From Micromonospora halotolerans (GTDB taxonomy: Bacteria > Actinomycetota > Actinomycetes > Mycobacteriales > Micromonosporaceae): a stretch of 64,000 bases of DNA. Shown piece after piece: positions 29,069 through 34,880 of this stretch. Location: NCBI RefSeq assembly GCF_032108445.1, contig NZ_CP134876.1, forward strand, positions 3,410,001-3,474,000. Reading direction: 5' to 3'. The notes beneath the pieces are model-generated. The model was not told the DNA's origin, ran no database searches, and saw only the letters and a program-made list of their open reading frames with translations. A program made the position numbers and the translations under genes. The number at the start of each line of letters is the position of its first letter. The first letter of the stretch is position 1.

Positions 29069-30126
29069 GGCTGGACGACCTCGGGCTTGCCCTCGGCCTT
29101 GAGCACCTCGTTGAGGTACTTCAGGTCGTAGAGGCCGTTGAGGTCCACCGGCTGGGTCAGCCCGACGGCGACGGCGTGGTCCAGGCCGGTCTTCAGCGAG
29201 GACGGGATCGGGTCGTTGGTGAACTCCAACGTCGGCCAGGCCTGCTTGATCAGCTTGAGGTCCAGCGGCTTACCGGTGATCTTGCCGATGTGGTCGGAGA
29301 TGGCCTGCTGGGCCTCGTCCGGCTTGGCGTTGACGAACTCGTTCGCCGCGACCTGCCCCTCGACCAGCTTCCGCACGACGTCCGGGTGCGCCTTGAGGAA
29401 CTTGGTGCTGACCAGCAGGTTGGTGATGACGAACTTCTTGTCCGGCCAGAGGTCCCGCTCGTCGACCAGCACCTTGCCGCCCGCGTTGACCAGCCGCGAG
29501 ACGAAGGGCTCGGGCACCCACGCGCCGTCGATGGCGCCGCTGGTGAAGGTCTCCACGGTCTGCGCGTTCTCCTGGGGGACCACCTTGACGTCGCCGCCGC
29601 CCTCCTTGGTGGTCTGCAGGCCCTTCTCCTTGAGCCAGTAGCGCAGCGCGACGTCCTGGGTGTTTCCGAGCTGCGGGGTGGCGATCTTCTTGCCGCGCAG
29701 CTGCTCCACCGACGTGATCTCCGGCTTCACCACGAGCGCGACGCCGCCGGACGCGGCGCCGGACACCACCCGGACCGCCTCGCCCTTGGACTTCGAGAAG
29801 GCGTTCACGGTCGGGTTCGGACCGATGTACGTGGCGTCGAGCGCACCGGAGAAGACCGCCTCGATGGCCGCCGGCCCGGCGTTGAAGGTCTTGGTCTCCA
29901 GCGTGACGTCGCCCAGCTTCTCCTTGAAGATGCCCTTCTCCACGCCCACCACGGCGGGCGCGTGGGTGATGTTCGGGAAGTAGCCCAGGCGCAGGGTGAC
30001 CGGACCGGAGCCGCCGGCCGCGTCGTCGCTGTCGTCGCCGCAGGCCGCGGTGGCGCCCAGGGTGGCCGCGCCGACCACGGCGAGGGTGGCCAGGGTGACC
30101 AGGCGGCGGAAGGGGAGCCGTCTCAT
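29065..30126 (-). CDS. ssuA: ABC transporter substrate-binding lipoprotein, SsuA type
   Basis: 353 residues. Signal peptide with lipobox ATAAC at about residues 24-28, then an acidic linker (GDDSDDAAGG) and a periplasmic-binding fold of the SsuA/TauA group (LRLGYFPNITHAPAVVGVEKGIF, GALDATYIGPNPTVNAF, EPFVSRLV). It binds the imported compound outside the membrane. It is the first gene of the operon ssuABC-rrf2. A TTCCTAC-N7-GTAGGAA dyad lies 21-41 bases upstream of the ATG, near where the promoter must be. Confidence 0.92.
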   Translation of the reverse strand: MRRLPFRRLVTLATLAVVGAATLGATAACGDDSDDAAGGSGPVTLRLGYFPNITHAPAVVGVEKGIFKEKLGDVTLETKTFNAGPAAIEAVFSGALDATYIGPNPTVNAFSKSKGEAVRVVSGAASGGVALVVKPEITSVEQLRGKKIATPQLGNTQDVALRYWLKEKGLQTTKEGGGDVKVVPQENAQTVETFTSGAIDGAWVPEPFVSRLVNAGGKVLVDERDLWPDKKFVITNLLVSTKFLKAHPDVVRKLVEGQVAANEFVNAKPDEAQQAISDHIGKITGKPLDLKLIKQAWPTLEFTNDPIPSSLKTGLDHAVAVGLTQPVDLNGLYDLKYLNEVLKAEGKPEVVQP

Positions 30127-30146
30127 CGTGTATCCAATCCGCAGTA

Positions 30147-30167
30147 TTCCTACTTAGTTGGTAGGAA
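30147..30167. promoter_or_regulatory. Inverted repeat TTCCTAC-N7-GTAGGAA before ssuA
   Basis: Perfect seven-base arms with an AT-rich seven-base spacer, a typical Rrf2-family operator shape. It lies just upstream of ssuA, whose operon ends with an Rrf2 regulator, so autoregulation is the simplest reading. Confidence 0.65.
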
Positions 30168-30342
30168 GACTGGGGCAGGCCGTGAGCGGCGTCAAGACCC
30201 GTCCGCGATCCGGGACGCGCGACCTGCGAGTTCTCGACAATTCCCACCTGTTCGGTGGAGATAGCCGCGCCGGTCGGCCACCGGCCGACACCGCCGTCCG
30301 GTGGGCCCGCGCACACCGCCGGTGCGGGCGCTGCCGACGCGT

Positions 30343-30348
30343 TAGGGT
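30343..30348 (+). promoter_or_regulatory. Leaderless-type -10 box for the M16 operon
   Basis: TAGGGT is followed by seven bases and the GTG at 30356; no ribosome site is seen. Confidence 0.5.
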
Positions 30349-30355
30349 CGATCAC

Positions 30356-31666
30356 GTGCCGACGCGGAGAGCGACAATTCCAGCGACGAAATACCCGGTC
30401 GAGCGGTTCACGCTCGACAACGGCCTGCGGGTGGTGCTCACCCCCGACCGCAGCGCCCCGGTCATCGGGGTGGCGGTGGTCTACGACGTCGGCATCCGCT
30501 CCGAGCCGGAGGGGCGCACAGGCTTCGCGCACCTCTTCGAGCACCTGATGTTCCAGGGCTCGGAGAACCTGGAGAAGCTGGCCCACTTCCGGCACGTCCA
30601 GGGCGCCGGCGGCACCTTCAACGGCTCCACCCACCTGGACTACACCGACTACTACGAGACCCTGCCCAGCAACGCGCTGGAGCGGGCGCTCTTCCTGGAG
30701 GCCGACCGGATGCGCGGCCCCCGCCTGACCGAGGAGAACCTGCGCAACCAGGTCGACGTGGTCAAGGAGGAGATCCGGGTCAACGTGCTCAACCGGCCGT
30801 ACGGCGGGTTCCCCTGGCTCACGCTCCCCCCGGTCATGTTCGACACCTTCCCCAACGCGCACGACGGCTACGGCTCCTTCGACGACCTGGAGTCGGCCAC
30901 CGTCGCCGACGCGGCCGACTTCTTCCGCCGCTACTACGCCAGCGGCAACGCCGTCCTGGCGGTGAGCGGGGACGTCGACGTGGTCGAGGCGACGGCGCTG
31001 ATCGAGCGGCACTTCGGCGATGTGCCGGCCCGCCCCGCCCCGGATCGCCCCGACTTCACCGAGCCCGACCTCACGGCGGAGCGGCGCACCTCGTACACCG
31101 ACAAGCTGGCCCCGCTGCCGGCGGTGGCCGGGGCCTGGCGCGTGCCCGACCCGCTGACCGACTTCGCCGGCTACCTGCCGTACGTGGTGCTGGCCGAGGT
31201 GCTCACCGACGGCGACGCCTCCCGGCTCGTCGAGCGGCTGGTCCAGCGGGACCGCTCGGTCACCAGCCTCGGCGGCTACCTCGGCTTCATGGGCGACCCG
31301 TTCGACGTGCGCGACCCCACCGCGCTGCTGCTCCAGGCGCACCTGCCGCCCGGCGGTGACGTCGACAAGGTGCTGCGGACCGTCGACGAGGAGCTGGACC
31401 GGCTGGCGACCGACGGGCTGACCGAGGGAGAGCTGGCCCGCACCCAGGCGCGGATGGCCACCCACCTGCTGCGGGACACCGACGCGGTGCTCGGCCGGGC
31501 GCTGGGAATGGCCGTCCTGGAACAGCAACGCGGCGAGCCGGGCCTGATCAACGAGCTGCCCCGGCTGGTCGGCGAGGTGACCGACGAGCAGGTCCGCGCC
31601 GCCGCCGCCACCCTGCGGCCGGAGCGCCGGGCGTCCATCGAGGTCATCCCCGGCGGTGCCCGGTGA
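30356..31666 (+). CDS. M16 family zinc peptidase, catalytic subunit
   Basis: 436 residues. The inverted zinc motif H59-L-F-E62-H63 lies in FAHLFEHLMFQGSEN, with the downstream glutamate expected in LRNQVDVVKEEI. The protein matches single-chain, pitrilysin/MPP-beta-like bacterial M16 peptidases and pairs with a non-catalytic partner encoded next. No signal peptide is seen, so it is probably cytoplasmic. GTG at 30356 follows a TAGGGT box by seven bases. Its stop overlaps the start of a 20-codon mini-ORF (GTGA), the first unit of a repeated coupling module in this operon. Confidence 0.9.
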   Translation: MPTRRATIPATKYPVERFTLDNGLRVVLTPDRSAPVIGVAVVYDVGIRSEPEGRTGFAHLFEHLMFQGSENLEKLAHFRHVQGAGGTFNGSTHLDYTDYYETLPSNALERALFLEADRMRGPRLTEENLRNQVDVVKEEIRVNVLNRPYGGFPWLTLPPVMFDTFPNAHDGYGSFDDLESATVADAADFFRRYYASGNAVLAVSGDVDVVEATALIERHFGDVPARPAPDRPDFTEPDLTAERRTSYTDKLAPLPAVAGAWRVPDPLTDFAGYLPYVVLAEVLTDGDASRLVERLVQRDRSVTSLGGYLGFMGDPFDVRDPTALLLQAHLPPGGDVDKVLRTVDEELDRLATDGLTEGELARTQARMATHLLRDTDAVLGRALGMAVLEQQRGEPGLINELPRLVGEVTDEQVRAAAATLRPERRASIEVIPGGAR

Positions 31667-31725
31667 GCGCGAGGAGTGAGCCGGGTTTGCGAGCCCCGCA
31701 GTCGCGAACGGAGGTGGCCCGGTGA
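31663..31725 (+). CDS. Mini-ORF linking the two M16 genes (repeat unit 0)
   Basis: A 20-residue peptide (start VSARSEPGLRAPQSRTE). It begins in the GTGA overlap with the upstream M16 stop and ends in a GTGA overlap with the next M16 start. It contains GGAGGTG as ribosome site for the following gene. The DNA is the same repeat unit found four times before nudC. It is probably a translation-coupling spacer rather than a functional peptide. Confidence 0.5.
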   Translation: MSARSEPGLRAPQSRTEVAR

Positions 31726-33089
31726 GCGCGGCCGCGAACGGAGGAAGCCCGGTGACGGCAACCGTGGAGACGGGTACCCGGCCGCTGCCGGCGCTCGGTC
31801 CCAACCGCAAACTCAAGCTCCCCAAGCAGGCCGAGCGCACGCTCGGCAACGGCCTCACCGTGATCGCCGTGCGCCGCAGCGCGATCCCGCTGGTCGAGCT
31901 GCGGCTCTGGATGCCGTTCGGGCGTACCCACCTCGCCCGCGGCGGGATGCTCGCGCAGACCCTGCTCTCCGGCACGGAGACCCACACGGCGACCCAGCTC
32001 GCCGCGGAGTTGCAGAAGGTCGGCGGCGGGCTCTCCGCCGGCATCGACCCGGACCGGCTGATGCTCTCCGGGGCGGGCCTGGTCACCGGCCTGGACCGGA
32101 TGCTGGAGCTGCTCGCCGACGTGCTCACCGGGGCCACCTACCCGACCGACTGGGTGGAGACCGAGCGGGAGCGGCTGGTCGACCGCATCCAGGTCGCCCA
32201 GAGCCAGCCCGCCCACCTGGCCCGCACCGCGCTGCTCAAGCGGATCTACGGCCGGCACCCGTACGCGGTGCAGACCCCCGAGCCGGACCAGGTGCGCGCG
32301 GTGCGGCCCCCGGTGCTGCGCCGGCTGCACGCCGAGCGGGTGCACCCGGCCGGGGCGGTCCTCGTGCTGGTCGGCGACGTGCAGCCGGAGAAGGCGCTGG
32401 ACGCCGCCGAGCGGGCGCTGTCCGGCTGGAAGGGAGAGGGGCAGCCGGCCGAACTGCCGCCCGCGCCGCCGCTGGAGCCCGGCCCGGTGCTGCTGGTCGA
32501 CCGTCCCGGCTCGGTGCAGTCGTCGTTGCGGATCGCGCTGCCCGCGGTGCCCCGCACCCACCCCGACCACGCCGCGCTGCAACTGGCCAACCTGCTCTTC
32601 GGCGGCTACTTCTCCTCCCGCTGGGTGGAGAACATCCGCGAGGACAAGGGCTACACGTACGGGCCGCACTCGCTGATCGAGCACTCGGTGGCCGGGTCGG
32701 TGCTGGTCGCCGCCGCCGAGGTGGCCACCGAGGTGACCGCGCCCGCCCTGCTGGAGACCATGTACGAGCTGGGCCGGCTGGCCGCCCTGCCGCCCAAGCC
32801 GGACGAGCTGGAGCAGGCCCGCCAGTACGCGCTCGGCACGCTCCAGCTCGGCATGTCCACGCAGGCCGGCCTGGCCTCGCTGACCAGCGCGTACGCGGGC
32901 AACGGGCTGCGGCTGGACTTCCTCGCCGAGCACGCCGCCCGGCTGGCCGCGGCGACCGTGGACGACGTGGCCGCGGCGGCGGCCCGCTACCTCGCGCCGG
33001 CGCAGGCGGTCACCGTGGTGCTCGGCGACGCCGAGCGGGTCGCCGACGGCCTGGCCGCGCTCGCCCCGATCCGCACGGAGTCCGCGTGA
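31722..33089 (+). CDS. M16 family protein, non-catalytic subunit
   Basis: 455 residues from GTG 31722, or 445 from the in-frame GTG at 31752; both have strong ribosome sites. The zinc motif position reads THLARGGMLAQTLLSG and lacks HxxEH, so it cannot bind zinc in the usual way. The C-terminal half keeps YFSSRWVENIREDKGYTYG, whose R/Y pair helps substrate binding in M16 partners. This is the layout of heterodimeric M16 peptidases. The first ten codons derive from a truncated copy of the mini-ORF repeat. Confidence 0.88.
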   Translation: MSAAANGGSPVTATVETGTRPLPALGPNRKLKLPKQAERTLGNGLTVIAVRRSAIPLVELRLWMPFGRTHLARGGMLAQTLLSGTETHTATQLAAELQKVGGGLSAGIDPDRLMLSGAGLVTGLDRMLELLADVLTGATYPTDWVETERERLVDRIQVAQSQPAHLARTALLKRIYGRHPYAVQTPEPDQVRAVRPPVLRRLHAERVHPAGAVLVLVGDVQPEKALDAAERALSGWKGEGQPAELPPAPPLEPGPVLLVDRPGSVQSSLRIALPAVPRTHPDHAALQLANLLFGGYFSSRWVENIREDKGYTYGPHSLIEHSVAGSVLVAAAEVATEVTAPALLETMYELGRLAALPPKPDELEQARQYALGTLQLGMSTQAGLASLTSAYAGNGLRLDFLAEHAARLAAATVDDVAAAAARYLAPAQAVTVVLGDAERVADGLAALAPIRTESA

Positions 33090-33151
33090 GCGCGAGGAGT
33101 GAGCCGGGTTTGCGAGCCCCGCAGTCGCGAACGAAGGAAGGCACCGCGTGA
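33086..33151 (+). CDS. Tandem mini-ORF 1 of 4 (62-base repeat)
   Basis: 21 codons starting VSARSEPGLRAPQSRTKEG. The GTG overlaps the stop of the M16 gene and the TGA overlaps the GTG of mini-ORF 2. GAAGGAAGG near its end is the ribosome site for the next unit. DNA copies 1 to 3 are identical. Because 62 is not a multiple of three, each unit restarts translation in a new frame. Confidence 0.5.
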   Translation: MSARSEPGLRAPQSRTKEGTA

Positions 33152-33213
33152 GCGCGAGGAGTGAGCCGGGTTTGCGAGCCCCGCAGTCGCGAACGAAGGA
33201 AGGCACCGCGTGA
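33148..33213 (+). CDS. Tandem mini-ORF 2 of 4 (62-base repeat)
   Basis: Same peptide as mini-ORF 1, joined on both sides by GTGA overlaps. Confidence 0.45.
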   Translation: MSARSEPGLRAPQSRTKEGTA

Positions 33214-33275
33214 GCGCGAGGAGTGAGCCGGGTTTGCGAGCCCCGCAGTCGCGAACGAAGGAAGGCACCGCGTGA
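33210..33275 (+). CDS. Tandem mini-ORF 3 of 4 (62-base repeat)
   Basis: Same peptide again, joined on both sides by GTGA overlaps. Confidence 0.45.
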   Translation: MSARSEPGLRAPQSRTKEGTA

Positions 33276-33337
33276 GCGCGAGGAGTGAGCCGGGTTTGCG
33301 AGCCCCGCAGTCGCGAACGGAAGAAGGCACCGCATGA
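33272..33337 (+). CDS. Tandem mini-ORF 4 of 4, joined to nudC
   Basis: Differs from units 1-3 by two substitutions near its ribosome site (GGAAGAAGG), giving EE instead of KE in the peptide. Its TGA overlaps the ATG of nudC as ATGA. Confidence 0.45.
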   Translation: MSARSEPGLRAPQSRTEEGTA

Positions 33338-34281
33338 CCGGAGAGCCTGCCCCACCGCTGGCCCGGACCACCCTGGACCGGGCGGCGCACCGGCGGACCG
33401 ACCCGGACTGGCTCGCCGAGGCGTGGGAGCACGCCCGGGTGCTCGTGCTGGACTCGACCGACGACGGCCGGGCGCTGGTCCGGGGCGTGGCGGCCCCGCC
33501 GGAGCTGGTGCTGGTCGGCTCCGGCGAGCTGCCCGAGGTGCCCCGGTCGGTGCCGATGTTCCTCGGCGTCGACGCGGACGGCGTGCCGGTCTTCGCGGTG
33601 GACGCGCCGCTGCCGGAGCTGGCCGGCACCCGCCGGGTCAACCTGCGCGAGGTCGGCCACCTGCTGACCGACCGCGACGCCGGCATCTTCACCACCGCGC
33701 TGGCGCTGCTCAACTGGCACGTCCGGCATGGCTACTCCTCGTCGACCGGCCAGCCGACCGAGGTGGACGAGGCCGGCTGGTCCCGGGTCGACCCGGGCGG
33801 CGGCCGAATCTGGCCGCGCACCGACCCGGCGATGATCGTGCTGGTGCACGACGGCGTGGACGGCCCGGACGGGCGCTGCCTGCTGGGCAACAACGCCACC
33901 TGGCCACGCACCCCGGGGGAGCGCCGCTACTCCTGCCTGGCCGGCTACGTGGAGCCGGGCGAGTCGGCCGAGGCCGCCGTGCTGCGCGAGGTCCGCGAGG
34001 AGGTCGGCGTCGCGGTCGAGGAGATCGGGTACGCCGGCAGCCAGTCCTGGCCGTTCCCCGGCTCGCTGATGCTCGGCTTCCTGGCCCGGGCGGACGCCGA
34101 CGCGCCGATCCGGGTGGATCCGGCCGAGATCGCCCACGCCCGCTGGTTCACCCGGCGGGAGATCGGCGCCGCGCTGGCCGACCAGCCGGTCCGCGTGGAC
34201 GGCGGCGACCGCCTGCTGCTTCCGCCACCCTCGTCGATCGCCCTCTTCCTGGTCCACCGCTGGCTCGACGGCCACTGCTGA
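33334..34281 (+). CDS. nudC: NAD+ diphosphatase, NudC-like Nudix hydrolase
   Basis: 315 residues. Would cleave NAD(H) to NMN(H) and AMP and may remove NAD caps from RNA. The Nudix box is GYVEPGESAEAAVLREVREEVGV, followed at the expected distance by SQSWPFPGSLM, the NAD-diphosphatase array (normally SQPWPFP). The four cysteines of the classic NudC zinc ribbon are replaced (HGYSSSTGQPTEVDEAGW), so no zinc site is expected. ATG at 33334 overlaps the stop of the fourth mini-ORF. Its last codons run into a 15-base tandem repeat. Confidence 0.88.
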   Translation: MTGEPAPPLARTTLDRAAHRRTDPDWLAEAWEHARVLVLDSTDDGRALVRGVAAPPELVLVGSGELPEVPRSVPMFLGVDADGVPVFAVDAPLPELAGTRRVNLREVGHLLTDRDAGIFTTALALLNWHVRHGYSSSTGQPTEVDEAGWSRVDPGGGRIWPRTDPAMIVLVHDGVDGPDGRCLLGNNATWPRTPGERRYSCLAGYVEPGESAEAAVLREVREEVGVAVEEIGYAGSQSWPFPGSLMLGFLARADADAPIRVDPAEIAHARWFTRREIGAALADQPVRVDGGDRLLLPPPSSIALFLVHRWLDGHC

Positions 34282-34432
34282 CCAGCGATCTGCCGACAGC
34301 CATCTGCTGAGGGCGACCTGTCGACGGGCGATCTGCTGACCGGCGATCTGTCGACGGGCGATCTGCCGAGCGCCGATCTGTCGACCGCGGATCTGTCGAC
34401 CGGCGGTCTGCCGGCCGGCGGTCCGCTGATCG
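34271..34432 (+). repeat. About eleven 14-15-base tandem repeats (VNTR)
   Basis: Degenerate units of the form GCGATCTGTCGACGG run from the nudC stop region for about 160 bases, with many GTCGAC. Read on the minus strand the period gives five-residue repeats rich in Arg and Asp, but I see no gene using it. Confidence 0.75.
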
Positions 34433-34630
34433 TCGGGCACGACGGTTCGGATGCGTCCGGGCGCCGACCGTCGTCGCCGAGGACGTCTGCTGGCCGCCCG
34501 GGAACACGCGCCCGCGGGATCCGTCGTCGCGGAGCCGGGCGCCACCGCGCACCACGCTATCGACTTGATGTCGTGGACGAATCCCTGCCGGCTCCCCGCA
34601 GCCCGCCAAGTCTCAAGCCCGCCCCAAGCA

Positions 34631-34751: not shown

Positions 34752-34880
34752 CCGGGAGACCGGGAGACCGGGAGACCGGGAGACCGGGAGACCGGGAGAC
34801 CGGGGGACCGGGAGGCCGGCGAGGTCGGGAGGCCGGAGAGGCCGGGGGTCGGGAGACCTGGAGGCCGGGGGGCAGCGAGG
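34752..34880 (+). repeat. 8-base simple repeat CCGGGAGA, then degenerate copies
   Basis: Six perfect units at 34752-34799 are followed by degenerate G/A-rich copies to about 34880. The rest of the interval to 35028 shows nothing recognisable. The strand bias (purine-rich plus strand) could favour slippage or R-loops. Confidence 0.8.

What the first reader, a model, noticed from the sequence alone, without database searches (positions are those of the whole stretch)
31663..33337. Operon of M16 peptidases and nudC stitched together by repeated translation-coupling mini-ORFs
A 59-62-base unit occurs once between the M16 genes and four times in tandem before nudC. Every unit starts with GTG overlapping the previous stop (GTGA), carries a GGAAGG-type ribosome site at its end, and hands over to the next start; the last ends ATGA on nudC. 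The unit length is not a multiple of three, so each restart uses a new frame. Copies 1-3 are identical, so copy number could change by recombination and tune nudC output. I know of no described system like this.
Basis: partly seen in the sequence, partly recalled or inferred. Interest (0 to 1): 0.75.

Follow-up and report, generated by a model that had tools for sequence, protein, structure and literature searches.

The report
Mobile repeat inserted at gene starts
A 59-62-base DNA repeat, scattered over this bacterium's genome, sits where one gene stops and the next starts and carries a mini-gene that could hand ribosomes on; it closely resembles the MIRU repeats used to type tuberculosis strains, so it is a new relative of a known kind rather than a new system.

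Summary
One 59-nt unit (31663-31721) lies between two M16 genes and four 62-nt units (33086-33333) before nudC; each mini-ORF overlaps its neighbours by 4 nt. But it is neither operon-specific nor without precedent. The core occurs 38 times at 25 places in this genome, in 147 of 151 sampled genomes of the genus, and in 0 of 207 from other families of the order. Of 81 sites with a start codon, 67 restart into a downstream gene by a 4-nt overlap, 13 are fused in frame, 1 does neither. Close relatives show uninterrupted sites and a short target duplication. A same-species genome has 2 units before nudC, not 4, and lacks the element at 9 of 21 own sites examined. This matches the published design of mycobacterial MIRU repeats: mobile, inserted at start codons, ORF coupled at -4 nt. 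Best reading: a MIRU-like mobile repeat that tolerates its own insertion by keeping translation coupled. Mini-ORF translation, the mobilising enzyme, tuning of nudC and homology with MIRU are not shown.

The parts
30356..31666 (+). M16 peptidase 1 (start codon uncertain); stop TGA 31664-31666
   Evidence: Pfam Peptidase_M16 and Peptidase_M16_C
31663..31721 (+). Repeat unit A, 59 nt; mini-ORF 31663-31725 (20 aa) overlaps M16_1 stop and M16_2 start by 4 nt each
31722..31751 (+). 30-nt truncated unit, in frame with M16_2; in same-species G022 the truncated and full unit stand in the opposite order
31722..33089 (+). M16 peptidase 2 (start 31722 or 31752); stop TGA 33087-33089
   Evidence: Pfam Peptidase_M16_C, Peptidase_M16
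33086..33147 (+). Repeat unit B1, 62 nt; GTG overlaps the M16_2 stop
33148..33209 (+). Repeat unit B2, identical to B1
33210..33271 (+). Repeat unit B3, identical to B1
33272..33333 (+). Repeat unit B4, core identical, spacer differs; mini-ORF 33272-33337 ends ATGA on nudC
33334..34281 (+). nudC, NAD(+) diphosphatase
   Evidence: NCBIfam NF001299 above its cut-off; Pfam NUDIX and NUDIX-like

Best explanation
The units are copies of a MIRU-like, non-autonomous mobile repeat family of the genus (Micromonospora). Shown by sequence: it lies as an insertion at NTGA stop/start junctions (at least once just inside a gene's first codons), reads towards the downstream gene in 80 of 81 sites with a start codon, and has a short duplication of the target on its two sides; the unit together with its local SD spacer forms tandem arrays whose copy number differs between strains. 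Whether a given difference is gain or loss was not resolved. Inferred: each mini-ORF is translated by ribosomes that finish the upstream gene, stop at TGA and restart at the overlapping NTG helped by the unit's SD, so that the downstream gene still receives ribosomes. The peptide itself is probably irrelevant, since sub-families encode different peptides but keep the stop/start overlap. At nudC this means four extra restarts in series, probably near neutral or a modest change of nudC translation, not a dedicated regulator. The mobilising enzyme is unknown.
For: 38 copies at 25 places in the genome; 147 of 151 genus genomes. Census of 87 sites (25 own sites holding all 38 own matches; 62 in 60 loci chosen from the listed places of six other genomes): 81 have an NTG start; 62 of 81 overlap the stop of an upstream coding-like ORF; 67 of 81 restart by a 4-nt overlap into an ORF of at least 80 codons with coding-like third positions, 13 are in-frame fusions (one of them open to the end of the locus), 1 neither; binomial p 7.5e-20 against one third. 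By downstream gene, 63 clusters, 60 with an NTG site: restart 46, fusion 9, both 4, none 1. Uninterrupted sites: of 12 own sites located in two relatives, G022 lacks the element at 9 and G009 at 6, e.g. ACAGTGAGGG against ACAGTGAG...GGCACAGTGAGGG. Flank agreement at -1 to -4 exceeds shuffled pairing, z 6.3, 3.8, 3.6, 2.5. Same species: of 12 shared arrays found, 5 differ in copy number. Spacer identity 0.82 within arrays, 0.45 between sites; 40 of 42 arrays have the same three variable bases in all units. Divergent own copies: at 10 of 14 loci the mini-ORF ends on the next start, with quite different peptides. On a named Micromonospora terminaliae plasmid the match begins on the last 4 nt of one annotated CDS and the next CDS begins 59 nt on. 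Five folded stretches: z -0.68 to 0.93.
Against: No ribosome profiling or expression data were available. No transposase or terminal inverted repeat was identified; transposition rests on uninterrupted sites and a short, eroded duplication. Six of 87 census sites lack an NTG start, 3 of them with a shifted frame that stops at once. One of the 67 restarts lies 36 nt beyond the core and may not be the true start. The 42 restarts between units within arrays are not independent evidence, since the period repeats the overlap. Of 14 divergent loci, 2 fit neither class and 2 of the others have lost the start codon. In four other genera the rule is looser: 8 restart, 6 fusion, 5 neither of 19 sites. 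The pattern search favours intact copies, and some sites are orthologous.
Confidence: 0.85

Rival explanations
1. Adaptive rheostat: the tandem units tune nudC output, with copy number selected.
For: Copy number at nudC is 0, 2, 3 or 4 among 29 genomes read. In M. tuberculosis the length of a tandem repeat before fpg1 was reported to correlate with its mRNA level (PMC2734929, passages seen).
Against: Arrays sit before many unrelated genes (63 downstream-gene clusters); 25 of the 29 genomes have no unit of this family at nudC; the cited effect was modest and on mRNA.
Confidence: 0.12
2. Selected micropeptide family: the peptide VSARSEP(G/V)LRAPQSRT has a function of its own.
For: The frame is open in 80 of 81 sites; changed codons are 83 synonymous to 61 not, against 37 to 92 among all possible single changes.
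Against: Sub-families with other internal lengths encode different peptides yet keep the overlap. Variation sits in a few columns, positions 28-37 are invariant at every codon position in the 92 units counted, and the pattern search biases that sample.
Confidence: 0.04
3. RNA hairpin, promoter or terminator element acting on transcription or mRNA stability.
For: Small dispersed repeat between genes. In M. tuberculosis the MIRU-holding senX3-regX3 intergenic region is reported to have promoter activity (PMC4213456, passages seen).
Against: No Rfam match; folding no better than shuffles; no promoter-like or terminator-like site in 30100-34500, though that scan covers only simple consensus types.
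Confidence: 0.05
4. Spread by recombination or template switching between the common GTGAGC gene starts, not by a transposase.
For: Many gene starts in the census share GTGAGC(G) with the unit's 5' end (listing); no inverted repeats noticed; tandem units duplicate with local sequence.
Against: Filled sites hold the whole core where the uninterrupted form shares only TGA(G) or so with it.
Confidence: 0.3

Closest known systems
MIRU, mycobacterial interspersed repetitive units (Supply et al. 1997; that paper is not held; described in passages seen of PMC12548453, PMC2734929 and PMC4213456)
   Same: 40-100-bp dispersed repeats (41 places in H37Rv, 12 polymorphic), tandem copies varying between strains, apparently mobile, inserted at start codons, internal ORF coupled to the next gene at -4 nt.
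   Different: Other host genus and family; 59-62-nt units here; 13 of 81 sites are in-frame N-terminal fusions; sequence homology not tested.
Tandem repeat VNTR3239 upstream of M. tuberculosis fpg1 (PMC2734929, passages seen)
   Same: Variable tandem repeats ending at a start codon; length correlated with mRNA level.
   Different: 55-bp and 79-bp units; effect on mRNA, not shown to be translational coupling.
Other small interspersed repeats of bacteria (BOX and RUP: abstract start of PMC3049150; REP, ERIC, Rickettsia palindromic elements: recalled, from no call)
   Same: Short, dispersed, encode no mobilising enzyme; some insert in frame in genes (recalled).
   Different: Those are mostly palindromic or hairpin forming (recalled); here no structure beyond shuffles and placement at start/stop junctions.

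Membership tests
MIRU | 40-100-bp repeats dispersed at tens of loci | tested here: met
   59-62-nt units, 38 copies at 25 places
MIRU | Between co-directional genes, same orientation as the downstream gene | tested here: met
   62 of 81 overlap an upstream coding-like stop; 80 of 81 read into a downstream coding frame
MIRU | Internal small ORF coupled to the next gene at -4 nt | tested here: met
   Overlap geometry at 67 of 81; 13 are in-frame fusions instead. Coupling itself is not shown
MIRU | Insertion at start codons, mobile | tested here: met
   Filled and uninterrupted sites at 12 places and at both junctions of this operon; one place (tilS-like, name recalled) is an in-frame insertion not at NTGA
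MIRU | Copy number polymorphic between strains | tested here: met
   5 of 12 arrays shared with a same-species genome differ
MIRU | No dyad symmetry (recalled) | tested here: met
   Folding no better than shuffles, z -0.68 to 0.93 over five stretches
MIRU | Sequence homology with mycobacterial MIRU | not testable with these tools
   Scan with a recalled MIRU typing primer gave 12 stretches, none mycobacterial by title; the 1997 paper is not held
MIRU | Host is a mycobacterium | tested here: not met
Hence called MIRU-like, not a MIRU

The most novel reading that the evidence does not exclude
Micromonospora hosts recently active, non-autonomous mobile elements that target the stop/start junctions of coupled genes and duplicate a few bases there, in at least two unlike sequence families with the same placement rule. 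MIRU would then be one branch of a wider actinobacterial class of elements that survive by preserving translational coupling, moved by an enzyme not yet known.
Probability: 0.5. Interest if true: 0.65.

Novelty: new variant of a known kind. Interest (0 to 1): 0.5.

Why it matters
It carries the MIRU design outside mycobacteria, into a genus known (by recall) for antibiotic producers, with filled and uninterrupted sites within one species. That makes two open questions testable in harmless organisms: what moves MIRU-type repeats, and what serial translation restarts do to downstream output. It also warns annotators that such units can look like N-terminal extensions, and copy number at these sites could serve as a strain marker for the genus.

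Tried and rejected
Rfam search of 31000-34500 gave no match. The promoter and terminator scan of 30100-34500 gave none. Folding gave nothing beyond shuffles. The peptide-selection idea was weighed with codon counts and set aside because sub-families encode different peptides and the sample is biased by the pattern. Phage records hold no match to the unit; among plasmids one record does, at two places, of which one was looked at.

Literature. MIRU with Micromonospora: 0 papers; Micromonospora with 'intergenic repeat': 0; 'mycobacterial interspersed repetitive' with DTGA: 0; a four-term MIRU query, at least 3 terms: 0. Broader queries listed only part of what they found (titles and abstract starts seen): 16 of 16, 1 of 1, 25 of 357, 15 of 464, 12 of 609, 10 of 100. 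None of the listed titles describes this repeat. That is no proof that it is not in print.

The own-genome search for the 3' half gave 62 matches with 9 in the reversed control: 38 are the full copies, 19 matches at 14 loci were read, 5 weak ones were not looked at.
Full report
What is there. Two M16 peptidase genes and nudC (names) run in one direction. Between the M16 genes lies a 59-nt unit (31663-31721) followed by a 30-nt truncated one (31722-31751). Between M16_2 and nudC lie four 62-nt units (33086-33333). The 48-nt core is identical in all five full units (mean 0 in 100 shuffles) and the four-unit array is also called by Tandem Repeats Finder. Each full unit is a mini-ORF of 20 or 21 codons from GTG to TGA whose start overlaps the previous stop and whose stop overlaps the next start by 4 nt. 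Within the array that overlap is repeated automatically by the 62-nt period: a second chain starts at an inner GTGA (33099, 33161, 33223) and does not lead into nudC. The telling junctions are therefore those with M16_1, M16_2 and nudC.

It is a dispersed family. With up to three mismatches the core pattern occurs 38 times in this 6.96-Mb genome (0 for the reversed control), at 25 places. In the genus, 147 of 151 sampled genomes hold it, with 0 to 53 copies each. In the family sample 49 of 200 genomes hold it: all 38 of the own genus and 11 in four other genera. In the order sample 34 of 249 hold it, all in the own genus; 8 family members of other genera and 207 genomes of other families have none. 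There an annotated acyltransferase CDS ends at 1804, the match starts at 1801 and the next annotated CDS starts at 1860, 59 nt on.

Placement. I read 87 sites: 25 own sites holding all 38 own matches (24 loci, plus L068 for the nudC array) and 62 sites in 60 loci fetched from the listed places of six other genomes of the genus (a choice of those listed, which were themselves only the first places). 81 have an NTG start. In 62 of 81 the stop of an upstream ORF with coding-like third positions overlaps that start. In 67 of 81 the last mini-ORF ends on the start of a coding-like ORF with a 4-nt overlap; in 13 it runs in frame into the gene (one of these is open to the end of the locus); in 1 neither. 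The stop begins 12, 15, 18 or 36 nt after the core at 51, 14, 1 and 1 of these 67 sites; the last may not be the true start. Many sites are orthologous; grouped by downstream gene there are 63 clusters, of which 60 hold a site with an NTG start: restart 46, fusion 9, both 4, none 1. Between units, 42 steps are GTGA restarts and 21 run through. Six sites lack an NTG start, and three of these have a shifted frame that ends at once. In four other genera, 19 sites gave 8 restart, 6 fusion, 5 neither, so the rule is looser there.

Uninterrupted sites. In relatives without the unit the M16_2/nudC junction is a plain ATGA or GTGA overlap (G019, G021, G030), and the M16/M16 junction likewise (G012 GTGA, G009 TTGA). 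For 12 further own sites I located the same place in a same-species genome (G022) and a close relative (G009): G022 has the element at 3 and lacks it at 9; G009 has it at 6 (one degenerate, not counted by the script but plain in the printed sequence) and lacks it at 6. Over 67 sites the bases just before the NTGA on the two sides agree more than shuffled pairs at -1 to -4 (63, 64, 51, 45% against 30, 47, 31, 35%) and not clearly further out, a short target duplication. One site (a tilS-like gene, named by recall) is an in-frame insertion just after a TTG start and not at NTGA.

Turnover. Of the 25 own arrays, 9 had a counterpart among the G022 loci fetched (30 of 36 places); copy number differs in 5 of these 9 (own and G022: 2 and 1, 4 and 2, 2 and 3, 2 and 1, and 4 and 2 at nudC). 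Three more shared places have one copy in each. So 21 of 25 own sites were examined in G022: 12 filled, 9 not; 4 were not examined. Twelve G022 arrays had no own counterpart among the places compared. At the M16/M16 junction the full and the truncated unit stand in opposite order in the two genomes. Tandem units at a place share their local spacer (identity 0.82 within arrays, 0.45 between places) and, in 40 of 42 arrays, the three variable bases, so tandem copies most likely arise by local duplication after insertion. At nudC, of 29 genomes with a readable upstream region (own included), the own has 4 units, G018 3, G022 and G009 2 each, and 25 none. Presence or absence was not polarised, so gain and loss are not told apart.

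Function. Predicted anti-SD pairing has medians of -9.2 (unit to unit), -8.8 (downstream gene) and -8.4 (first unit) kcal/mol against -3.7 for random positions. nudC starts with the element average -8.5 (4 genomes) and without it -5.8 (22 genomes, 3 of which are stronger than any with it); 3 genomes had no start found and 1 lacked the region (the anti-SD sequence is recalled). Fourteen own-genome loci with divergent copies were read: at ten the mini-ORF ends on the next start (nine by 4 nt, one of these with its own start codon lost, and one array by 8 nt), two are in frame (one with its start codon lost), two fit neither. Their peptides differ (SEPGLRAPQSRT, SELASPAVANERRAR, SAAERSPAVANERMAL), so the overlap is kept and not the peptide. 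A second, unlike family (RTGAGCGAGCG...) shows the same design: six places in this genome, four restarts and two in frame; it or shortened forms of it also sit before nudC in several relatives that lack the first family there. No RNA structure stands out.

What it is. [quoted passage not shown] 1997, which is not held). MIRU are 40-100 bp at 41 places in H37Rv, 12 of them polymorphic (PMC2734929, passages seen); one paper says they exist only in M. leprae and the M. tuberculosis complex (PMC4213456, passages seen). The architectural features I could test are met here; homology of sequence could not be tested and the host is not a mycobacterium, so I call it MIRU-like. What seems new, as far as the searches named above go, is the host group, the second family with the same rule, the in-frame fusions, and within-species pairs of filled and uninterrupted sites with a short target duplication.

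Noticed in passing
Genomes G024, G029, G002, G028, G005, G007 before nudC (loci L079, L081, L083, L086, L093, L096); own genome at C1:3910008 and five other places: A second repeat family (RTGAGCGAGCG..AGCGAGCGAACCAT...), about 80 nt in full form and shorter in some relatives, with the same start/stop placement as the first.
   Followed up: partly
window 34282-34440: A 15-nt period just after nudC reads in one frame as GDLST/ADLST-like five-residue repeats (pentapeptide-repeat-like, by recall); may be a gene remnant.
   Followed up: no
window 34752-34869: 8-nt tandem repeat CCGGGAGA, about 15 copies.
   Followed up: no
G000:C1:4302832-4303024 (locus L209): A four-unit array of 58-nt units whose mini-ORFs overlap by 8 nt (GTGGCTGA) instead of 4; the local gene start GTGGCTGACG flanks the array on both sides.
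   Followed up: partly
locus L319 (Micromonospora terminaliae plasmid pLB1): The repeat also sits on a 24.9-kb plasmid, between an acyltransferase gene and a glycerol-3-phosphate dehydrogenase gene; two places in that record, one looked at.
   Followed up: partly
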